From positions 1 to 44,511 of IMG/VR virus record IMGVR_UViG_3300023223_001376: DNA of 44,511 bases. The stretch is one strand, 5' to 3'. Positions within the stretch are counted from its first letter, which is position 1, and every line of letters starts with the position of its first letter. The notes under the pieces were generated by a model. It made no database searches. It was not told where the DNA came from and worked only from the letters and a program-made list of their open reading frames with translations. This DNA comes from a virus. The position numbers and the translations under genes were made by a program. Of this stretch, positions 1,693 to 37,724 are shown piece by piece.

Positions 1693-2355
1693 TTATAACC
1701 TCACTGGCATAAGAATTGCCGTTGCCGTTGTTCCTTTCCCATCATCGGCGGTTACTACCATTGACAGATGCTCTCCTAGTTTTTTGATACCATTCTCCTC
1801 ATCCATTCCGTCTTTTTTCAGATAAAGAGTGATGCAGTGATCTTTTTCCTCATACTTTTCTAAAAGCATACAGACCTCTTTTAAATAGCGGGCATTGACT
1901 CCTACCCTTTGATATTGGTCTGGATTTTTAAAATCTGGAATCACTTGCTCATAACTTGGAAACTTGCTGTCAACAGTTCTAGCCTCTACATTTTCGGTAT
2001 TATCCAAGTCCGTAGTTTGGCAGATTACTTTATCAGGATGCCCGGTTGGTACTACCTTTAAACCGATAGCCGCATTTTCTAGCACAGGTAAATCAGGTTT
2101 CTTAGGGATATTTTTTAAGGCTTTTTCGATGGTAGGGCGGTGAACGATAAAAGGCTTATCGTTTTCACTCCATTCCACGCCATTAGCCTGCCATTCCACC
2201 CCTTCCTCTGGCTCTGATTCAACATAGACAAGGCGGTGCCCATCGGTGGCCACCGTTTTATTGCCATCAAATAGAAGACCATACAAAGCCTGTCTCGATG
2301 GGTCTGTGGATGAAAATTTAATGATTTCTAGTTGTTTCTTATTGAATAATCGCAT
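1693..2355 (-). CDS. DnaN-like DNA sliding clamp, shortened
   Basis: The protein resembles the bacterial beta clamp (DnaN), the ring that tethers DNA polymerase to DNA. Residues 34-42 read TVATDGHRL, the domain II signature of DnaN; residues 128-140 read VDSKFPSYEQVIP, matching the conserved VDGRFPxYxxVLP stretch; the C-terminus is MPVRL, matching the MPMRL end of DnaN. DnaN is about 366 residues in three domains; this protein is 220 residues and begins at the equivalent of domain II, so domain I is absent. Its length is close to that of the two-domain trimeric clamps T4 gp45 and PCNA. AAGGAG precedes ATG 2355. I infer that it serves the phage family A polymerase (33409-35751) or competes for the host clamp site. 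Confidence 0.8.
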   Translation of the reverse strand: MRLFNKKQLEIIKFSSTDPSRQALYGLLFDGNKTVATDGHRLVYVESEPEEGVEWQANGVEWSENDKPFIVHRPTIEKALKNIPKKPDLPVLENAAIGLKVVPTGHPDKVICQTTDLDNTENVEARTVDSKFPSYEQVIPDFKNPDQYQRVGVNARYLKEVCMLLEKYEEKDHCITLYLKKDGMDEENGIKKLGEHLSMVVTADDGKGTTATAILMPVRL

Positions 2356-11677: not shown

Positions 11678-12613
11678 ATGCGTAAATTCATTGACTTGTT
11701 TTGCGGTATTGGAGGTTTCCATATTGCATTGCAAAAGCAGGGTATGGATTGTGTTTTTTCCAGCGACATAGACGAAAAAGCACGTACCGCATACTATCAA
11801 AATTTTGGGGATAAACCAGAAGGGGATATAACTAAAATCCCGGAGCGAGATATCCCTGCTCATGATATCTTATGTGCTGGGTTTCCGTGTCAATCTTTTA
11901 GTATTTCAGGAAAAAAACTAGGGGTTAACGATACTAGGGGTCGGCTATTCTATGAAATAGTCCGAATTGCAGAGTACCACCAGCCTAGCATTTTGCTTTT
12001 GGAAAATGTAAAAAATATTGTGTCTGTTGACGGTGGAAAAACTCTCAAGATAATTGAAAAAAAGTTGGATGAGGCCGGTTATGAAATGAATCTCTCTACA
12101 CTCAATGCTTCTAATTTTGGGATTCCTCAAAAAAGGGAACGGACTTATTTTGTGTGTCTGCGAAAAGATATCTCTAACTTAAGCTACCGTCCTCCGAAGG
12201 GAAATTTTAAACACATCTATTTGGAAAACATTCTTGAGAAGCAGATAGACAATAAGTTGTATATAAATAGAAAGGATATTTTCTTTAAAGAAAATCCAAT
12301 CTTAGGGTATCACTTAAAACCAGTGAGAGTTGGAATAGTGAATAAGGGAGGCCAGGGGGAGCGCATATACAGTACGAAAGGTCATGCCATTACATTGTCC
12401 GCCTATGGTGGTGGGGTTGGGGCAAGAACAGGTCTATATCAAACAGAAAAAGGTATTCGTAGATTATCAATCGTTGAGTGTAAACGGGTAATGGGATTCA
12501 GCGATAACCACTATGTTAGTAATGGTATGAGGGGTTACCAAGAATTGGGAAATGCTGTCATTCCAAAGATGATTGAAAGTGTTTACCATTCAATCAGGGA
12601 AAGGAAGGCATAG
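11678..12613 (+). CDS. C5-cytosine DNA methyltransferase
   Basis: An S-adenosylmethionine-dependent DNA (cytosine-5) methyltransferase, 311 residues, the size of small HaeIII/HhaI-type enzymes. Motif I is DLFCGIGGF (6-14), motif IV FPCQSF (69-74, catalytic C71), motif VI ENV (109-111), motif VIII is in PQKRERTYFV, and motif X is GNAVIP (from G291). No partner restriction enzyme is visible, so it probably protects phage DNA. Arginine codons include more CGG/CGT/CGA than its neighbours, and it interrupts the usual terL-portal adjacency, so it looks acquired. Confidence 0.93.
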   Translation: MRKFIDLFCGIGGFHIALQKQGMDCVFSSDIDEKARTAYYQNFGDKPEGDITKIPERDIPAHDILCAGFPCQSFSISGKKLGVNDTRGRLFYEIVRIAEYHQPSILLLENVKNIVSVDGGKTLKIIEKKLDEAGYEMNLSTLNASNFGIPQKRERTYFVCLRKDISNLSYRPPKGNFKHIYLENILEKQIDNKLYINRKDIFFKENPILGYHLKPVRVGIVNKGGQGERIYSTKGHAITLSAYGGGVGARTGLYQTEKGIRRLSIVECKRVMGFSDNHYVSNGMRGYQELGNAVIPKMIESVYHSIRERKA

Positions 12614-17564: not shown

Positions 17565-18347
17565 ATGAGTATTTTAAATGAATTGCTGAGCGAGATGTTT
17601 GAGGTTGTAAGGGTATTGATTGGGATACCAACTGTAGGAGGAGTGCATCCAGCAGCTTATGATAATAGGCTAGAGATGATGAAATATTTAGGGATTGTGC
17701 AAGCTGCTTCTCATTATGGTAAGGATAAGTTTGAGGAGATTAAACTTCCTACCTTTGATAAGATGTTTAAGTTTGATGTCTATGTAATAGGGAGGGTATT
17801 GACTCCTATTGCGAGGGAGAATTTAGCTCAGAGAGCAGTTGATGAAGGTTATGATTATCTCCTCTTCATAGACGATGATATGCTCACCCCTCAAGATTTG
17901 TTCTTTCATCTCTACAAGCACAAGAAGGATATAGTAGCAGCACTAGCGTTTACTAGAAACTATCCTCACCGTCCTGTGATCTACCGATTGGATAAGGGAT
18001 TTGAGGATGGGAAGCCTTGGTATTCTAACTATGCTATCCTAGACTATCCAAAGGATTCACTTGTTAAATGTGATGCAGTAGGATTTGGCGCTGTTCTCAT
18101 TGACACGAAGGTATTCAAGGGTATGAAAGGGAAGTGGTTTGCTACTACAAGTGGAAGAGGAGAGGATATCTTCTTCTGCCATCAAGCGGGTGAGCAAGGA
18201 TTTGAGATATATATGGACACCACAGTTAAACTAGGACATCTAGGTGATCCTATCAACATAGATGAGAAATACTATGAGGAGATGCCTGAAAGTAAGATTA
18301 AGGAGTTGAGGGATGCCCTTCCTGAGAAGAAGGGGGTGGAGATATGA
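17565..18347 (+). CDS. GT-A type glycosyltransferase
   Basis: A 260-residue protein with a nucleotide-sugar-transferase layout: RVLIGIPTVGGVHPA at residues 16-30, then the metal-binding DDD at 103-105 (LLFIDDDM), followed by an acceptor-side CDAVGFGAVLIDTKVF region and GRGEDIFFCHQA, which resembles the late acidic motif. Known relatives transfer sugars from nucleotide donors in the cytosol. It opens a three-gene glycosyltransferase set in the head operon and overlaps the next gene by 4 bases. I infer a virion protein, most simply the capsid, as target. Confidence 0.8.
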   Translation: MSILNELLSEMFEVVRVLIGIPTVGGVHPAAYDNRLEMMKYLGIVQAASHYGKDKFEEIKLPTFDKMFKFDVYVIGRVLTPIARENLAQRAVDEGYDYLLFIDDDMLTPQDLFFHLYKHKKDIVAALAFTRNYPHRPVIYRLDKGFEDGKPWYSNYAILDYPKDSLVKCDAVGFGAVLIDTKVFKGMKGKWFATTSGRGEDIFFCHQAGEQGFEIYMDTTVKLGHLGDPINIDEKYYEEMPESKIKELRDALPEKKGVEI

Positions 18348-19537
18348 GAGAGCCTATTGATGTAATCATCCCCACTTATGATAATCTAGATCAACTTTTC
18401 CAGTGTGTCTCCTCTGTTCTAAGGACTCAGAAAGAGTATCCTTTGAGGATCATAGTAGTGAATAATGGTTCATATCCTTTAGAGGGAGTGTTACCGAAGG
18501 AAGTTAAGATAGTAAACCCTGCTGGGAACAAGGGCTGGACAGGTGGGCTGAAGTTAGGAGTTGATATCAGCGTTAGTTCCTCTTCTTCCTATGTCGTTTT
18601 TTTAAATGATGATACTTATGTCCCCCTATGCTCAGTGTCTTGGTTGAGGGACATGGTTAGAGTCTTGGATACCACGCCTCTCTGTGGTGCTATAGGCCCA
18701 AGCTCTAACTGTGTTTCGGGTTATCAAAATATCTGGAGTCCCCCCTTTGTTACTAAGATTGAAGTCCCATTCCTAATTGGATTTTGTAAGGTGGTGAGGA
18801 GAAAGGCTCTGGAGGAGATTGGGGGGATAGATGAGAGGTGGGTACATGGGGATGATCTTGATTTGTCTTTGAGAATGAGAAAGAGAGGATATGGATTAAT
18901 GTGTTTGAAGAGTACCTTCATATATCATCATGGTTTCCAGACAGGTGAGAAGTTGTTTGGAGGTAGGGAGAAAAAGGGAGGATGGAACTCTCAGGAGCAA
19001 GTTGAGAATACTAACATCTCAGTAATAAAGGAGCATGGATTCTTGAGTTGGTGGGAGATGTATGCGGGGGAGTGGACTCGTCTTCTCAATGGGCCTAGTA
19101 AGGATATTGAGGGAGATATGGTTAGAGAGCTTTGTGAGGGTATTGATCCTAGTATGATCCTTGACATAGGATGTGGGGAGGCTCTTACAGTTAAAGGTAG
19201 TAGGGGATTAGATAGGAAGAGAGATGGAGTAGATTTCAATGAGGGAATATGTATAAAGAAGCATTCCTTTGATGTTATTATAGCTCGTCACATCCTTGAA
19301 CATCTTGATAAGCCAGATGAGAGGATTAGAGAATGGATGCAGCTCTTGATTATAGGCGGTAAGTTGATAATCTGTTGCCCTAATGAGGATATCAATGATA
19401 CAATCCCAATGGACAAGACTCATAAGCATGCTTTCTCTCCCTCCTATCTAACTCATCTAGTAGTTAGTTGTGGAGGACGTGTAACACTGGAGAGAGAGGA
19501 GATTAATGGGATATCATTCCTATTAGTAGTAGAATAA
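18344..19537 (+). CDS. Family 2 glycosyltransferase fused to an SAM methyltransferase domain
   Basis: Residues 1 to about 230 form a GT2 domain: IDVIIPTYDNLDQLFQCVSS at the start, IIVVNNG, NKGWTGGLKLG and the metal motif FLNDD (D89-D90), with GGIDERWVHGDDLDLSLRMR downstream. Residues from about 270 form a class I methyltransferase: MILDIGCGEALTV (D274), then FDVIIARHILEHL and GGKLIICCPNED. Such a fusion could add a sugar and methylate it, or methylate a glycan acceptor. The ATG overlaps the upstream stop by 4 bases. Confidence 0.85.
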   Translation: MREPIDVIIPTYDNLDQLFQCVSSVLRTQKEYPLRIIVVNNGSYPLEGVLPKEVKIVNPAGNKGWTGGLKLGVDISVSSSSSYVVFLNDDTYVPLCSVSWLRDMVRVLDTTPLCGAIGPSSNCVSGYQNIWSPPFVTKIEVPFLIGFCKVVRRKALEEIGGIDERWVHGDDLDLSLRMRKRGYGLMCLKSTFIYHHGFQTGEKLFGGREKKGGWNSQEQVENTNISVIKEHGFLSWWEMYAGEWTRLLNGPSKDIEGDMVRELCEGIDPSMILDIGCGEALTVKGSRGLDRKRDGVDFNEGICIKKHSFDVIIARHILEHLDKPDERIREWMQLLIIGGKLIICCPNEDINDTIPMDKTHKHAFSPSYLTHLVVSCGGRVTLEREEINGISFLLVVE

Positions 19538-19563
19538 AATCAACCAAGATAAGGGGAAAACCA

Positions 19564-20469
19564 ATGATAAGTGAGGAGTTAAAAAAGAAGAAGATTGCGA
19601 TCTTTTATGATGTTGTGACCGGAAGGGATGATGGACCACCCCTCTACTACCGGAGAAACTTGGTAAAGATGGGATTTGATGTTACCTTCCTAGCTCCTAA
19701 GGACCATGAGAGCATAGAAGCTTTTGGAGATTTTTACTTATACCTTTGGGTTGACTGGGGTGAAGATGCCTTGAAGGATATCTTAACTTATATACCTGTT
19801 GATATGTCTCGATACCATCCCTCGGTCTACATAACAAGTGATACTCATCTTGGATTTGATTATAGGGTGAATAAGGCTAAGGAGTTTGACTATGTTTTCT
19901 GTAATCAAAAGAGGGCTGTGGAGGAGTTTAAGGAAAAGGGAGTGGAGGCTAAGTGGCTTCTACATGCAGTTGATCTGGATATATACTCGGATGAACCTAA
20001 GTCGATTAAGAAATATGATGTCGGCTTTGTGGGTTTTGTATCGAATAAGAAGAGGGCTGAAGCACTTAACACAGTTTTTAAATTTCAGCCGAACTTTTGG
20101 TATGGGCAGAGATTCTTTGAAGAAGCTGCCATGAAGTATAAGGAGTGTAGAGTGAACTTTAATAATGCTGCTGTAGATGATATCAATATGAGGTTTTTTG
20201 AGGTACTGGGTTGTGGGGGAGGGGTGTTAGTAACGGAGGATGTACCTACTCTTAAGGATATCTTGCCAGAGGGTTTACAAGTATGTTATAGGTATCAACA
20301 TAGTAATTGGAAGGATGCTTGTCTAAGGATGGAGCTAGTTTTAGCCAATCCTTATAATGCAGCAATGCACGTAGCAAGGGATGGGAGAAAGTGGGTGGAA
20401 GAGAATCACACCTATGAGCATAGGATTAAAGAAGCACTGATACCTATTTTGGAGAAAGAGAATGGCTAA
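19564..20469 (+). CDS. CgeB-like (GT-B) glycosyltransferase
   Basis: A 301-residue protein resembling the CgeB/glycosyl-transferase-1 group: KIAIFYDVVTGRDDGPPLYYRRNLVKMGFDVTFLAP as the N-terminal Rossmann part, a middle YDVGFVGFVSNKKRAEAL, and the C-terminal nucleotide-sugar site INMRFFEVLGCGGGVLVTEDVPTLKDIL. The third sugar-transfer gene of the cassette. Its end overlaps the head-tail adaptor gene by 8 bases, so it is a fixed part of the virion operon. Confidence 0.82.
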   Translation: MISEELKKKKIAIFYDVVTGRDDGPPLYYRRNLVKMGFDVTFLAPKDHESIEAFGDFYLYLWVDWGEDALKDILTYIPVDMSRYHPSVYITSDTHLGFDYRVNKAKEFDYVFCNQKRAVEEFKEKGVEAKWLLHAVDLDIYSDEPKSIKKYDVGFVGFVSNKKRAEALNTVFKFQPNFWYGQRFFEEAAMKYKECRVNFNNAAVDDINMRFFEVLGCGGGVLVTEDVPTLKDILPEGLQVCYRYQHSNWKDACLRMELVLANPYNAAMHVARDGRKWVEENHTYEHRIKEALIPILEKENG

Positions 20470-31364: not shown

Positions 31365-31717
31365 CTGATCACTCCGTCCTTTCTATTTTCATTATCATCA
31401 AAATACATAGCCATTGCAGAATTTACAGAAATCTTTGCTAGGTGATCCTCAGTCCTATCTCCATCTTTATACTTGTTCAGGTGATACTCTATATGGTTGA
31501 GACATACATGAATTGGGAAACCCATCTTCCAATTATTATCTCCGTGCGTTTCTGCCCCTTCTGCCCATATCTTAGCCTCTCTCCTCGTAGCACAAGCAGG
31601 AGCTAGATCAAACCTCCATTCCTCTACGTCCATACTCCTAGTAGCTCCACTTTTAAATAATCTTAATTGCTCTCTTATCTTATCAGTTTCTTTCTCTATC
31701 CCGCTAGATTGATTCAT
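31361..31717 (-). CDS. dATP/dGTP diphosphohydrolase-like protein (DUF5664/MazG-like)
   Basis: Start set at ATG 31717 (AAAAAGGAGAG upstream). The sequence WRFDLAPACATRREAKIWAE, GAETHGDNNWKMGFPIHVCL and YHLNKYKDGDRTEDHLAKIS matches the DUF5664 domain, which InterPro names a dATP/dGTP diphosphohydrolase N-terminal domain and which is MazG-like. It would hydrolyse purine dNTPs and so shape the nucleotide pool. It has 118 residues. No PurZ-like enzyme is visible here, so diaminopurine DNA is not indicated. Confidence 0.8.
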   Translation of the reverse strand: MNQSSGIEKETDKIREQLRLFKSGATRSMDVEEWRFDLAPACATRREAKIWAEGAETHGDNNWKMGFPIHVCLNHIEYHLNKYKDGDRTEDHLAKISVNSAMAMYFDDNENRKDGVIR

Positions 31718-33408: not shown

Positions 33409-35751
33409 TTAAGCCATCTTCCAATTCTTCCCTATATCAATATCAACTGGGATAACAACTTCCCTCCCATTTATGTAAAGTGGCTGCATCAACTCCTCTC
33501 TTACAATCCTCTCCACCTCTTCCTTATCTTTTTCTAAGAATTGAATGACAAGCTCATCATGGCATTGAATGAGTATGGTTGAAGTCTCCGGTAGACGATG
33601 GAACATCCGCACTCCCGCTAGGTTGATGTGATCGCAAGCTGTCCCTTGTGGCTCATTTGCATAAGCAGCCTTAAAAAGGTCTCCTTTCTGCTCCTCCTCT
33701 TCCTTCCAAGTGGGCCATCTCTCATAAAAGATGCGCCTTCTACCTAGAGGATTGATAAGGGTTCGGCTCTCTTTTAATTGGTCAATGACCCTCTGCCACC
33801 ATTTCTTAAGATCAAACATTCTGTAATATTGCTCAAGAAGTTCTTTACATCTTTTTAAAGTAAACCCAGTCTCCTCCTGTAGCCTCTTAGCTGAAATGTG
33901 GTAGTTAGCAGAGTGACCTGTTTTCTTCCCCTCTTTTCTCTCAAACGTACCCTTACCACAATCCTCATAATCCTTGCCATGTAGCATTGCTCCCACCATA
34001 GAATGAATATCTTTACCTTCCTTAAAGGTCTGCATCATAATTTTATCTTCTGAGATGTAAGCTACAAGTTGGTTCTCAGCTTGACAGAGATCAACCTTTA
34101 GAAATAGATATCCTTCGTCTGCTATGAAGATATCTCTAATCTCTCCCGGTATGTTTTGGAGTTGTAGTCCTGTCCCTCTTATGTTCTGAGTTGATGAGAG
34201 CCTACCAGTTTTAGCTCCGGTGATCTTGAAGGAGGCATGGCACCTACCATCCTCATCCCAAAAATCATGGAGGTAGGTTGATAGGAGCTTCCTTTGTCCT
34301 CTAATATCTAGGATTAAGTTAAACAAGGGATTAGGGAAAGATCGGTTGAGCTTCTGCAAGGCTTTCTCATCCACTGTCCTAACCTTCTTCTTTTCCCCCG
34401 TTTTTGTAATCGAGAGTTTGAACTGGGGAGGGTAGCCTAACTCCTGATAGATGAGTTTACACATCTTAGTAGGAGAGTTTATATCAGGCAAGTAGCCAAC
34501 TTCTTTAGTAAGTAGATCTTCTAATCTTTTAACCTCAATCTCTGCCTCCTTTTGGTATTCCCTCACCCTATCCTTATTTATTAACACCCCTGTGTGGGAG
34601 GCCCTCCACAGCATCCTACCTAGGGGCATCTGGAATCCGTGGAGGAAATTGTGTAGCGAGTCCTCTTTTAACCTCTCCTCCAGATATTCATAAATTTGAA
34701 AAGTTACATCATTATCCTTGCAGTTATAGAGGTATAGAGCCTCAGGATCATAATTTGCATCATGAGCCTCTGTTTTATAGTAGGGATCATCTGTGTAGAT
34801 GGAGGTTTGAACAGCGAGAGCCTTTTTAATCTCAGGTAGGTATAGGTGGGAGGCAATCATTGTATCCATGTAAACAGGGTGAATTTCACCAATGTAGGGG
34901 AAAAGCATCTCCATTTCAAAACTCATGTTTTGGATGATTTTTCTAATATTCGTAGATGTAAGGATATTTCGAATCTGTGTCCACAACTTAGATTCTTGAT
35001 CTACGCTCCAGAAGGGTTTCCCTTTCTCCACGATGGGGATACATACAGCACTATGGCTTCTAATACTAAAACCAATACATTTAATAATATCCGTGTATTT
35101 GTAGGTTTCAATGTCGATAGCAAGTGCTTTAGACTCCATAGCACTAGAAAGCCAGTCCTGTGCATCTCTAAACTCGGTGAATGTTTTATAATCTTTTTTT
35201 ATATAGGTAATTCCCTTTATTTCGCTCTCCTTCTTGATCTTAAGGAAATCGAAAAGCATAAGAGGTGAATCTCCCCATGATCTCATTATAAAAGCAGGAT
35301 GGAGAGTGGGGATCACCTTGACAGGAGTCCCATCTCTACCTATTGATGGATAAGATGGTATGATAGAGCCTCTCCAGTTTGTAATCTTATCCTTCTCCCT
35401 CACTCCCTTCCCCGTTATAGCCTTTAATGCTACGTTCCCTAGGGGGACTATGACGTTTGGGTTTAGTTGTCTAAGTTCCCTTCTAAGCTCCTCCTCACAC
35501 TCCTCTAACTTCAATCCTATTTCATGCAGTTTGTGAAGGTTATTATTAGGTGGGCGATATTTTATCACATTAGTTATGTAGCATTGACTCCTCTCAACTC
35601 CTGCCTCCCTCATTATCTGAGTTAAGAGGGTACCTGAGGCTCCAGTGAAAGGGACTCCTGTCTCATCCTCCTCCCTACCTGGTGCCTCTCCCACAAGGAC
35701 TATCTTAGCATCTATCGGCCCAACCGGCTCAACTCTACGAGGTTTGTTCAT
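33409..35751 (-). CDS. Uracil-DNA glycosylase / family A DNA polymerase fusion
   Basis: Residues 1 to about 190 form a UDG-superfamily (family 4-like) domain: VGEAPGREEDETGVPFTG from residue 20, NVIKYRPP, and a late HPA motif. A 3'-5' exonuclease domain follows with DIE at 213-215. The polymerase part has motif A around D554 (KVDLCQAENQ, usually DYSQIE), motif B with H613 and Y617 (GHSANYH; Tyr at the Pol I F762 position) and motif C HDE at 731-733. At 780 residues it lacks a 5'-3' exonuclease. UDG-PolA fusions are known in some phages. It is the replicative enzyme; its start overlaps the upstream stop (ATGA). Confidence 0.92.
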   Translation of the reverse strand: MNKPRRVEPVGPIDAKIVLVGEAPGREEDETGVPFTGASGTLLTQIMREAGVERSQCYITNVIKYRPPNNNLHKLHEIGLKLEECEEELRRELRQLNPNVIVPLGNVALKAITGKGVREKDKITNWRGSIIPSYPSIGRDGTPVKVIPTLHPAFIMRSWGDSPLMLFDFLKIKKESEIKGITYIKKDYKTFTEFRDAQDWLSSAMESKALAIDIETYKYTDIIKCIGFSIRSHSAVCIPIVEKGKPFWSVDQESKLWTQIRNILTSTNIRKIIQNMSFEMEMLFPYIGEIHPVYMDTMIASHLYLPEIKKALAVQTSIYTDDPYYKTEAHDANYDPEALYLYNCKDNDVTFQIYEYLEERLKEDSLHNFLHGFQMPLGRMLWRASHTGVLINKDRVREYQKEAEIEVKRLEDLLTKEVGYLPDINSPTKMCKLIYQELGYPPQFKLSITKTGEKKKVRTVDEKALQKLNRSFPNPLFNLILDIRGQRKLLSTYLHDFWDEDGRCHASFKITGAKTGRLSSTQNIRGTGLQLQNIPGEIRDIFIADEGYLFLKVDLCQAENQLVAYISEDKIMMQTFKEGKDIHSMVGAMLHGKDYEDCGKGTFERKEGKKTGHSANYHISAKRLQEETGFTLKRCKELLEQYYRMFDLKKWWQRVIDQLKESRTLINPLGRRRIFYERWPTWKEEEEQKGDLFKAAYANEPQGTACDHINLAGVRMFHRLPETSTILIQCHDELVIQFLEKDKEEVERIVREELMQPLYINGREVVIPVDIDIGKNWKMA

Positions 35752-36162: not shown

Positions 36163-36353
36163 GCTCCTCCTTCTCTAGGCGGGATTATATCAGGATCACC
36201 CTTACAGGCAGGGGGTGGCCCTAAAATGGGAGGAGGGTGATTCTCACACCAAGGAGCATGTTGAGGTTCTCCTTTCCCATCTTCATCCTCGTATTCTAGG
36301 GTATAGTGGGGACACAGAGGACACATTTCTTCTAGGATATCTTTATTCCTCAT
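36159..36353 (-). CDS. Small Cys/Pro-rich hypothetical protein
   Basis: The product has a CPLC pair, then CENH and a later Cys in a Pro-rich tail (PPPILGPPPACKGDP), possibly one zinc site. The start is uncertain: ATG 36353 is used here, but several in-frame ATGs lie upstream inside the hexanucleotide repeat, where this frame reads MSMSMSM. It overlaps the metalloprotease gene end. No family recognised. Confidence 0.55.
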   Translation of the reverse strand: MRNKDILEEMCPLCPHYTLEYEDEDGKGEPQHAPWCENHPPPILGPPPACKGDPDIIPPREGGA

Positions 36354-36720
36354 ACTCATACTCATACTCATATTCATCCTCATCATCAAGATCATCCCTC
36401 TCTAGGTTGTCAATGATATTCTTAAAGGTATCAGGGTTATCTCTAAAGATAGTGACTAAGCCATTGGATAGTATTCTAACATTATTCTCTGTGTGGAGTA
36501 CTTCTTCCTTGCCTCTTAGTTCATGCCCCATTGCCGTAAGAAGAGCGTGGATCATTTCATGGAGAAAGGTATTTGCCTTTTCTTGATTGTCTAGAGTTTC
36601 TTCTATCTTAATTACTCCTTTATCATGTCTTGACACACCAAGTAAACCGGCTTCTGTTAGGTCTTCTTCTATTACTTTGTAGGTGCGGTTTAGTACTTCA
36701 ACAGTTTGTGGCAATTGCAT
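36343..36720 (-). CDS. HExxH metalloprotease-like phage protein
   Basis: Start set at ATG 36720 (GGAG 7 bases upstream). The HEMIH motif at residues 54-58 (TFLHEMIHALLTAMGHEL) is the zinc-binding signature of SprT/ImmA-like metallopeptidases, with a helical region following (ENNVRILSNGLVTIFRDNPD). The C-terminus is a run of acidic residues with EYEYEYEE encoded by a hexanucleotide repeat. Similar HExxH proteins recur in phage early regions; substrate unknown. Confidence 0.75.
   Translation of the reverse strand: MQLPQTVEVLNRTYKVIEEDLTEAGLLGVSRHDKGVIKIEETLDNQEKANTFLHEMIHALLTAMGHELRGKEEVLHTENNVRILSNGLVTIFRDNPDTFKNIIDNLERDDLDDEDEYEYEYEYEE
36351..36378 (-). repeat. Hexanucleotide repeat in overlapping frames
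   Basis: About four copies of CATACT (one degenerate) encode EYEYEYEE at the end of one gene and MSMSMSM at the start of the next. Changes by whole units would lengthen both products without frameshift. Confidence 0.8.
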
Positions 36721-36746
36721 TTTTAAACTCCATTTTTCTAACATTA

Positions 36747-37374: not shown

Positions 37375-37695
37375 TTAAAATACTTCTCTTTCTCCTTTGG
37401 ATACAGCCTCTGTATTGCGTGTTTTTACTTTGTTTATGGTTCCTAGCAAGTTTGCACCAGCAAGTTGTGTTTCTTTAAGGTTTGCATCGTACAGGTCTGC
37501 ATGGCGAAGGTCTGTACCACACAGGTTTGCACCCTGCAAGTTTGCACGACGAAGTTTTATATGGCGAAGATTTTTATGGCTAAGGTCTACACCAACAAGG
37601 TCTGTATCGGTTAGGTCTGCAGGTTCCCCTCCATCTTCCCCTCCAATCCATTTTTCGTGTTTTAAAATAAGCTCTTCAAATTCTAGTTTATCCAT
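37375..37695 (-). CDS. Pentapeptide-repeat protein
   Basis: Start set at ATG 37695; GGAG is 10 bases upstream. Residues about 25-90 consist of A(D/N)LxX-type units: LTDTDLVGVDLSHKNLRHIK, LRRANLQGANLCGTDL and RHADLYDANLKETQLAGANL, which fold as a right-handed quadrilateral beta helix. Known members can mimic DNA (as MfpA and Qnr do with gyrase). A DNA-mimic or gyrase-directed role is possible. 106 residues. Confidence 0.85.
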   Translation of the reverse strand: MDKLEFEELILKHEKWIGGEDGGEPADLTDTDLVGVDLSHKNLRHIKLRRANLQGANLCGTDLRHADLYDANLKETQLAGANLLGTINKVKTRNTEAVSKGEREVF

Positions 37696-37724
37696 TGTTT
37701 TCAAGCTCCAGTTTATCCATTGTT
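37675..37724 (-). repeat. 25-bp tandem duplication at the pentapeptide gene start
   Basis: 37675-37699 and 37700-37724 match at 22 of 25 positions; each carries an AACAATGGATAAACT start-codon context. The upstream copy gives the frame ending MDKLELENNG whose stop overlaps the true gene start. Confidence 0.8.

What the first reader, a model, noticed from the sequence alone, without database searches (positions are those of the whole stretch)
1693..2355. Shortened bacterial-type sliding clamp encoded by a phage
TVATDGHRL, FPSYEQVIP and terminal MPVRL identify a DnaN relative, but it has 220 residues, not about 366, and starts at domain II. A two-domain clamp of bacterial type would have to trimerise like T4 gp45 or PCNA, or act as a decoy on the host clamp loader. 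Either would be a notable replication device beside a family A polymerase.
Basis: partly seen in the sequence, partly recalled or inferred. Interest (0 to 1): 0.7.

Follow-up and report, generated by a model that had tools for sequence, protein, structure and literature searches.

The report
One-and-a-half-domain phage sliding clamp
This phage carries a cut-down relative of the bacterial DNA sliding clamp that keeps the pocket where replication proteins dock but has only one and a half of the usual three domains, so it cannot close around DNA in the usual two- or three-part way.

Summary
Window 2355..1693 (minus strand) encodes a 220-residue DnaN relative that starts at domain II. Profiles and an AlphaFold2 model show three beta-alpha-beta-beta-beta half-domains: domain II plus only the second half of domain III. 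Among 40 short clamps tested, this one included, the profile of domain III's first half matched 0, and those of domain I's halves 0 and 1. What survives is the pocket for clamp-binding motifs (junction II.a/III.b). Known rings have 12 half-domains (2x6 or 3x4); subunits of three fit neither plan. A twelve-part ring would need four subunits; otherwise the protein is open. A short clamp finds matches in 258 phage records; those listed are often named "DNA polymerase III beta subunit" or, wrongly, "RusA-like resolvase". Of 28 such records of at least 35 kb, 19 show no family A polymerase, and 0 of 29 searched show a clamp-loader gene. Most likely it is a minimal tether: CBM pocket outside, basic helices towards DNA, serving host proteins. 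A soluble decoy of the host clamp is the main rival. Assembly and function are untested.

The parts
1693..2355 (-). CDS of the short clamp, 220 aa
2364..2369 (-). ribosome-binding sequence AAGGAG, 8 bases before the ATG
   Evidence: read directly
2206..2355 (-). half-domain II.a (residues 1-50): E2-4 H6-14 E26-30 E33-37 E41-47, with R21, L24, T37, G39, H40, R41, L42 of pocket subsite I
   Evidence: II.a profile E=7e-8; AF2 model
1936..2205 (-). half-domain II.b (residues 51-140): E69-72 H73-82 E98-103 E109-115 E120-127, ends in FPSYEQVIP (P133, V138 of the pocket)
   Evidence: II.b profile E=7e-4, matched stretch 124-140; AF2 model
1696..1935 (-). half-domain III.b (residues 141-220): H155-166 E176-179 E199-204 E209-215, with N154, Y157, M216, P217, R219 of the pocket. 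No III.a precedes it
   Evidence: family profile 134-196 matches E. coli beta 311-366; III.b profile E=1.7e-4 for the whole frame in the six-frame search, best single stretch only 0.3; III.a 5e2
33409..35751 (-). family A DNA polymerase with N-terminal UDG-superfamily domain; possible client, no QLxLF-type motif
31655..31669 (-). QLRLF, the only exact QLxLF among the ORFs scanned, just before a dATP/dGTP diphosphohydrolase domain; possible chance match

Best explanation
It is a minimal beta-type clamp of three half-domains: domain II complete plus the second half of domain III. SHOWN by computation: this architecture, and the conservation of nearly the whole pocket that binds clamp-binding motifs (CBMs). 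INFERRED: it docks CBM-bearing proteins, mainly of the host (Pol III alpha, clamp loader delta, repair polymerases), in the pocket, and touches phage DNA with its basic helices, so it tethers those proteins to phage DNA. It does so without the standard ring, most likely as an open unit, as is reported for herpesvirus UL42 and UL44; a closed ring of four is set out as a rival. No phage clamp loader was found, so it would load itself or use the host's loader.
For: Architecture: in the profile of 12 short clamps only one half-domain's worth of columns follows domain II; that last third (134-196) aligns with E. coli beta 311-366 up to the C-terminus as a stretch of its own, besides the main stretch 7-190 on 136-305 (same with 20 clamps). 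Profiles of the six half-domains of 77 full-length DnaN hit 40 short clamps as Ia 0, Ib 1, IIa 35, IIb 21, IIIa 0, IIIb 20 at E<0.01. The AF2 model (pLDDT 76.9, pTM 0.76) has three beta-alpha-beta-beta-beta units, the first strand of the third not assigned. It aligns 1-220 to E. coli beta 128-366 with 174 residues at 2.7 A, Z about 13. Pocket: in 18 relatives found by protein similarity and not by motif, 10 of the 19 columns conserved in at least 80% of rows are pocket residues (R152 18/18, L155 18/18, G174 18/18, H175 17/18, P242 18/18, Y323 16/18 and four others; pocket list from passages of PMC11139829). P0001 is identical at 14 of the 17 pocket positions I could map. DNA side: helix charge is not lower than in DnaN (31 short against 77 full: II.a +1.35 and +0.49, II.b +1.77 and +1.58, III.b +0.61 and -0.58), and in the 18 relatives K/R is gained on the III.b helix at Y323+6 (16/18 against 6/77) and Y323+9 (12/18 against 4/77). 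Host use: PolA (phrog_17) in 12 of 37 records; PolB 0/29, PolIII alpha 0/29, loader family PF13177 0/29.
Against: No binding, loading or assembly was measured, and no multimer could be modelled. Three conserved channel charges of DnaN are rare in the short set (ref 202: 49/77 and 4/31; ref 203: 57/77 and 4/31; ref 241: 71/77 and 6/31), which fits a protein that no longer slides on DNA. P0001 lacks the gained lysines at Y+6 and Y+9 and is acidic overall (-3.18 per 100 aa), although its II.a and II.b helices are +3 each (III.b -1). Many relatives seem to lack the II.b helix (read by eye from alignments). In 5 of 20 annotated regions the gene sits among virion genes on the other strand, unlike a replisome gene. 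The phage polymerases examined show no canonical CBM.
Confidence: 0.42

Rival explanations
1. Clamp mimic (decoy): a soluble monomer or dimer offers the CBM pocket off DNA and takes Pol III, the clamp loader or repair proteins from the host clamp, slowing host replication or freeing these proteins for the phage.
For: Pocket kept while three conserved channel charges are lost. No family A polymerase match in 25 of 37 records. Stand-alone gene among virion genes in 5 of 20 annotated regions, e.g. Sodalis SO-1, where the record notes a possible moron, and Kagunavirus Snoke, where it has its own RBS and terminators. In Hafnia phage yong1 it lies between cII and replication genes. A phage sliding clamp (Waterfoul gp48) was toxic when overexpressed (passage of PMC11797047; its length was not checked). 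A Gp168-beta-clamp complex is among the structures matched (7evp; that Gp168 is a Twort phage inhibitor of the host clamp is recalled).
Against: Helix charges are as basic as or more basic than in DnaN and new lysines appear on the helix that faces DNA in DnaN, which a decoy would not need. Next to an annotated phage polymerase in 3 of 20 regions (L004, L065, L067).
Confidence: 0.3
2. Closed ring of four subunits (4 x 3 = 12 half-domains) with 2-fold contacts III.b:III.b' and II.b:II.b', pockets on both faces.
For: Archetypal rings have six domains whatever the subunit number (passage of PMC9690074). A clamp domain is a pseudo-2-fold pair of half-domains, so III.b could pair with itself (geometry argument from recalled structures). 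Helices stay basic.
Against: No multimer model or measurement; II.b helix seemingly missing in many relatives; no precedent known to me.
Confidence: 0.15
3. Trimer of gp45 or PCNA type.
For: Length near that of gp45 (recalled); Foldseek also lists PCNA and 9-1-1 chains.
Against: Three half-domains instead of four; closest fold and sequence are bacterial DnaN domains II-III.
Confidence: 0.03
4. Partner of the host clamp: it joins or caps a host beta ring as a mixed oligomer.
For: The free edge of II.b normally pairs with domain I of a beta clamp, so a host domain might pair with it (inference from recalled structures).
Against: The usual dimer interface involves Ile272, Leu273, Ile78 and Phe106 (PMC11139829), that is III.a and domain I, both missing here.
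Confidence: 0.06

Closest known systems
Bacterial DnaN beta sliding clamp (TIGR00663, PF02767/PF02768)
   Same: Homologous over domain II and the second half of domain III; same CBM pocket; fold match Z 12.9-16.3 in the 50 rows shown
   Different: No domain I, no III.a, so no standard dimer interface; 28.1 bits against the TIGR00663 cut-off of 137.65
PHROG 3007 short phage proteins ('RusA-like Holliday junction resolvase')
   Same: Profile of 190 positions; 20 of 20 members of A6 match it
   Different: The PHROG name looks wrong: P0001 matches no Pfam family, and of 20 members 14 match the DnaN central domain and none a RusA model at E<=0.01
Phage proteins annotated 'DNA polymerase III sliding clamp' or 'beta subunit' (Snoke gp6, fEg-Eco19 gp23, Burkholderia AH2 gp20 of 209 aa)
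   Same: Same size class; Snoke and fEg-Eco19 are hits
   Different: In the passages I read (fEg-Eco19, AH2) an ordinary clamp or beta subunit is named and missing domains are not mentioned; AH2 gp20 was not aligned here
T4 gp45 / PCNA
   Same: Clamp fold; shorter subunit than DnaN
   Different: Two full domains and trimer; here one and a half domains
Herpesvirus UL42 / UL44
   Same: Clamp-like processivity factors that are not ring-shaped and bind DNA directly (PMC9690074 passage)
   Different: Other family; not compared here

Membership tests
Bacterial DnaN beta clamp | Homology and clamp fold | tested here: met
Bacterial DnaN beta clamp | Three domains (six half-domains) per subunit | tested here: not met
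   three half-domains; I.a and III.a profiles 0 of 40 short clamps, I.b 1 of 40; AF2
Bacterial DnaN beta clamp | Curated score of TIGR00663 (137.65 bits) | tested here: not met
   28.1 bits
Bacterial DnaN beta clamp | CBM pocket residues | tested here: met
   14 of 17 mapped positions identical in P0001, 2 conservative (V360 to I214, M364 to V218), 1 different (R246 to Q137); V344 not mapped
Bacterial DnaN beta clamp | Conserved positive residues of the channel | tested here: inconclusive
   the short set loses three conserved K/R positions; P0001 keeps R73 and R126 at two of them
Bacterial DnaN beta clamp | Closed ring around DNA, loader-dependent | not testable with these tools
   no multimer prediction; no loader match PF13177 in 29 records
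T4 gp45 / PCNA trimeric clamps | Two domains (four half-domains) per subunit | tested here: not met
PHROG 3007 short phage clamps | Profile match over nearly the whole length | tested here: met
   E=1.7e-14, residues 20-220 on 22-186 of 190
UL42/UL44 open processivity factors | Loader-free DNA binding without a closed ring | not testable with these tools
   needs DNA-binding and size measurements

The most novel reading that the evidence does not exclude
A new ring stoichiometry: four subunits of one and a half domains close a 12-part clamp with 2-fold symmetry, made by pairing III.b with III.b' and II.b with II.b', with docking pockets on both faces. It would be a non-polar sliding clamp, unlike the head-to-tail rings known to me.
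Probability: 0.15. Interest if true: 0.88.

Novelty: new variant of a known kind. Interest (0 to 1): 0.58.

Why it matters
Sliding clamps are described as six-domain rings built as 2x3 or 3x2. A widespread family with one and a half domains per subunit either breaks that rule (open clamp or four-part ring) or is a pocket module turned on the host's clamp clients. Members exist in phages that grow on E. coli K-12 (e.g. Skarpretter), so the question can be settled with ordinary biochemistry. It also points to a wrong label: "RusA-like Holliday junction resolvase" stands on 12 of 60 and 16 of 60 listed relatives.

Tried and rejected
Two-domain clamp: rejected by the half-domain count. Gene fragment or missed start: rejected (frame opens 4 codons upstream; no other clamp piece in six frames). 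RusA resolvase: no Pfam match. First AF2 model with 12 rows was poor (pLDDT 54.2) and was replaced by the 20-row one. Close relatives of P0001 by single-protein scan: none; among rows of A6 the nearest-looking are L156 and L175 (24% and 30% identity). A CBM in phage polymerases: 0 of 9 PolA proteins have a QLxLF-type motif, 1 of 9 a loose QRPLF (7 of the 9 are from other short-clamp phages, one, L010, from a contig with a close polymerase). In the window's scanned ORFs the wider pattern gave 3 matches with 2.94 expected and Qxx[LM]F gave 2 with 2.15 expected; 1 is an exact QLxLF. Helix charge as a sign that DNA contact is lost: the result went the other way. Several independent losses of III.a: a first tree asked for at least 2 changes, but one clade is not rejected (p-AU 0.615; 26 of 108 rows left out). 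A genome contigs pattern scan for short clamps gave 0 matches. No paper on clamps lacking half a domain appeared in searches (open-licence papers only; listings, and passages of seven papers); the 2011 survey of viral replicases that I recalled is not held.

Biases told: the 40 short clamps are P0001, 18 found by protein similarity, 9 found by a pattern that requires the short VIP-to-GxN spacing (L012, L015, L017, L019, L021, L029, L032, L033, L042), and 12 found by VATDGHRL and then by ORF size. Conservation in A6 and the hypergeometric figure are therefore partly by construction and are not relied on; one search repeats the conservation test on the 18. The 77 full-length rows were the training rows of the half-domain profiles. 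In some searches the main stretch runs on into III.a, since half-domains resemble each other; the choice of III.b rests on the separate second stretch, and on the C-terminal motif. 9 of 40 short clamps were dropped because the script found no cut point. The phrog_17 search missed the annotated polymerase of PEi21, so absence of a polymerase is a weaker result, and several records are fragments. My reference DnaN (L008) was read from its second codon, so its 'ref' numbers are one low.

Full report
THE OBSERVATION. The window is a virus record of 44,511 bases whose ends share a 144-base direct repeat, so it is probably a complete phage genome. It matches PHROG 3007 at 1.7e-14 and a DnaN profile at 2.7e-14; Pfam alone finds nothing.

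ARCHITECTURE. A clamp domain is a pair of beta-alpha-beta-beta-beta half-domains; E. coli beta has six per subunit (I.a to III.b) (established knowledge). A profile of 12 short phage clamps, P0001 first (A4), matches solved beta clamps in two overlapping stretches: profile 7-190 on E. coli 136-305 (63.8 bits), and its last third, 134-196, once more on 311-366, to the C-terminus (18.8 bits). A 20-row profile repeats this (8-171 on 136-295, 129-186 on 314-366). So only one half-domain follows domain II, where a full clamp has two; half-domains resemble each other, so it can be laid on III.a or on III.b. Its identity as III.b rests on the GxNxxYL and MPxRL motifs and on separate half-domain profiles built from 77 full-length clamps and run on 40 short ones, P0001 included. 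At E<0.01 these gave Ia 0, Ib 1, IIa 35, IIb 21, IIIa 0, IIIb 20 of 40. For P0001 alone the best single stretches are II.a 7e-8, II.b 7e-4, III.b 0.3, III.a 5e2; in the window's six frames its whole-frame III.b match is 1.7e-4 and it is not among the five best III.a matches. AlphaFold2 with 20 rows (A6) gave pLDDT 76.9, pTM 0.76 and elements E2-4 H6-14 E26-30 E33-37 E41-47 / E69-72 H73-82 E98-103 E109-115 E120-127 / H155-166 E176-179 E199-204 E209-215: three half-domains with one long helix each, short helices H91-94 and H135-138 apart. The model aligns with E. coli beta 128-366 over 174 residues at 2.7 A, Z about 13, best Z 16.3 with the Elizabethkingia clamp. A first model on 12 rows was poor.

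WHAT IS KEPT AND LOST. The CBM pocket of beta consists of R152, L155, T172, G174, H175, R176, L177, P242, R246, V247, V360, M362 (subsite I) and H175, N320, Y323, V344, M362, P363, M364, R365 (subsite II) (PMC11139829, passages). By position all lie in II.a, II.b and III.b. In 18 relatives found by protein similarity and not by motif, 19 columns are conserved in at least 80% of rows, and 10 of them are pocket positions. Three K/R positions conserved in full-length clamps (49, 57 and 71 of 77) are rare in the short set (4, 4 and 6 of 31). Against a simple loss of DNA contact, the helices of the short forms are as basic as or more basic than those of DnaN, and in the 18 relatives K/R is gained on the III.b helix at Y323+6 (16/18 against 6/77) and Y323+9 (12/18 against 4/77) and in the loop at R152-4 (12/18 against 8/77). 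P0001 lacks the two helix lysines.

DISTRIBUTION. A short clamp of Vibrio phage R19R finds matches at E<=1e-3 in 258 of 50,697 phage records, 249 covered over at least 80%; that of Acinetobacter phage 4316 in 93, 37 over at least 80%. P0001 itself finds 20 at E<=10, full-length clamps among them, with one covered over 80%. Of 120 ORFs with VATDGHRL in viral contigs, 96 were classed full-length, 14 short (two pairs identical), and 10 run off an end of the fetched stretch. In the 20 annotated short-clamp regions I opened, 3 genes lie next to an annotated polymerase (L004, L065, L067) and 5 lie among virion genes on the other strand (L062, L066, L072, L074, L075). The polymerase family phrog_17 is found in 12 of 37 records, and in 9 of the 28 that are at least 35 kb long; PolB in 0 of 29, Pol III alpha in 0 of 29, loader family PF13177 in 0 of 29. 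PEi21's annotated polymerase was missed, so these are lower bounds. A tree of domain II does not reject one origin for the short forms (p-AU 0.615).

MECHANISM. Archetypal rings have six domains, i.e. 12 half-domains (PMC9690074 passages). Three options remain: an open tether, a four-part ring, or a soluble decoy. I favour a tether that holds CBM-bearing proteins by the pocket and DNA by the basic helices, because the pocket is conserved and basic charge on the helices is kept or gained in the family. That these helices face DNA is taken over from DnaN. Clients are probably host proteins: 0 of 9 phage PolA proteins examined has a QLxLF-type motif, and 19 of 28 larger records with the gene show no family A polymerase. 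In this phage the only exact QLxLF among the ORFs scanned is QLRLF before a dATP/dGTP diphosphohydrolase domain, possibly chance. The decoy is the main rival. Pocket and architecture are shown by computation; DNA contact, clients, assembly and effect are inferred.

NOVELTY. The proteins are in public records under clamp or RusA names. In the papers I could search none was seen to describe the missing half-domain; I saw listings and passages, not whole texts. The fEg-Eco19 passage assumes an ordinary clamp and the AH2 passages list a beta subunit of 209 aa. No solved structure of a short clamp was found: the 55 sequences matched at E<=0.001 are clamps of 366 residues or more, some in fusions. 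The library holds open-licence papers only, so prior description cannot be excluded.

Noticed in passing
33409-35751 (-): Family A polymerase with an N-terminal uracil-DNA-glycosylase-superfamily domain (residues 10-161, E=4.5e-32) fused to exonuclease and polymerase domains.
   Followed up: partly
L067 3001-3207 and 3286-3528 (Edwardsiella phage PEi21): The short clamp is annotated as two adjacent ORFs, both named RusA-like resolvase, directly after a DNA polymerase.
   Followed up: no
L062 12001-12519 and L072 3001-3522: Short clamp as an opposite-strand gene between head genes; in Snoke with its own RBS and terminators on both strands. Snoke also has an intein in a capsid gene.
   Followed up: partly
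11678-12613 (+): C5 cytosine methyltransferase gene sits between terminase large subunit and portal-like genes.
   Followed up: no
17565-20469 (+): Three glycosyltransferase-like ORFs inside the structural module (judged by eye from the translations; only a sub-threshold Pfam match for the first).
   Followed up: no
37375-37704 (-): Small pentapeptide-repeat protein in the replication half of the genome.
   Followed up: no
36343-36744 (-): Metalloprotease-like protein (weak PHROG match) ending in an alternating EYEYEYEYEE tail.
   Followed up: no
183-203: Run of 21 T close to the left end.
   Followed up: no
alignments: Enterobacterial, Vibrio and related short clamps seem, by eye, to have lost the II.b helix that P0001 keeps.
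   Followed up: partly
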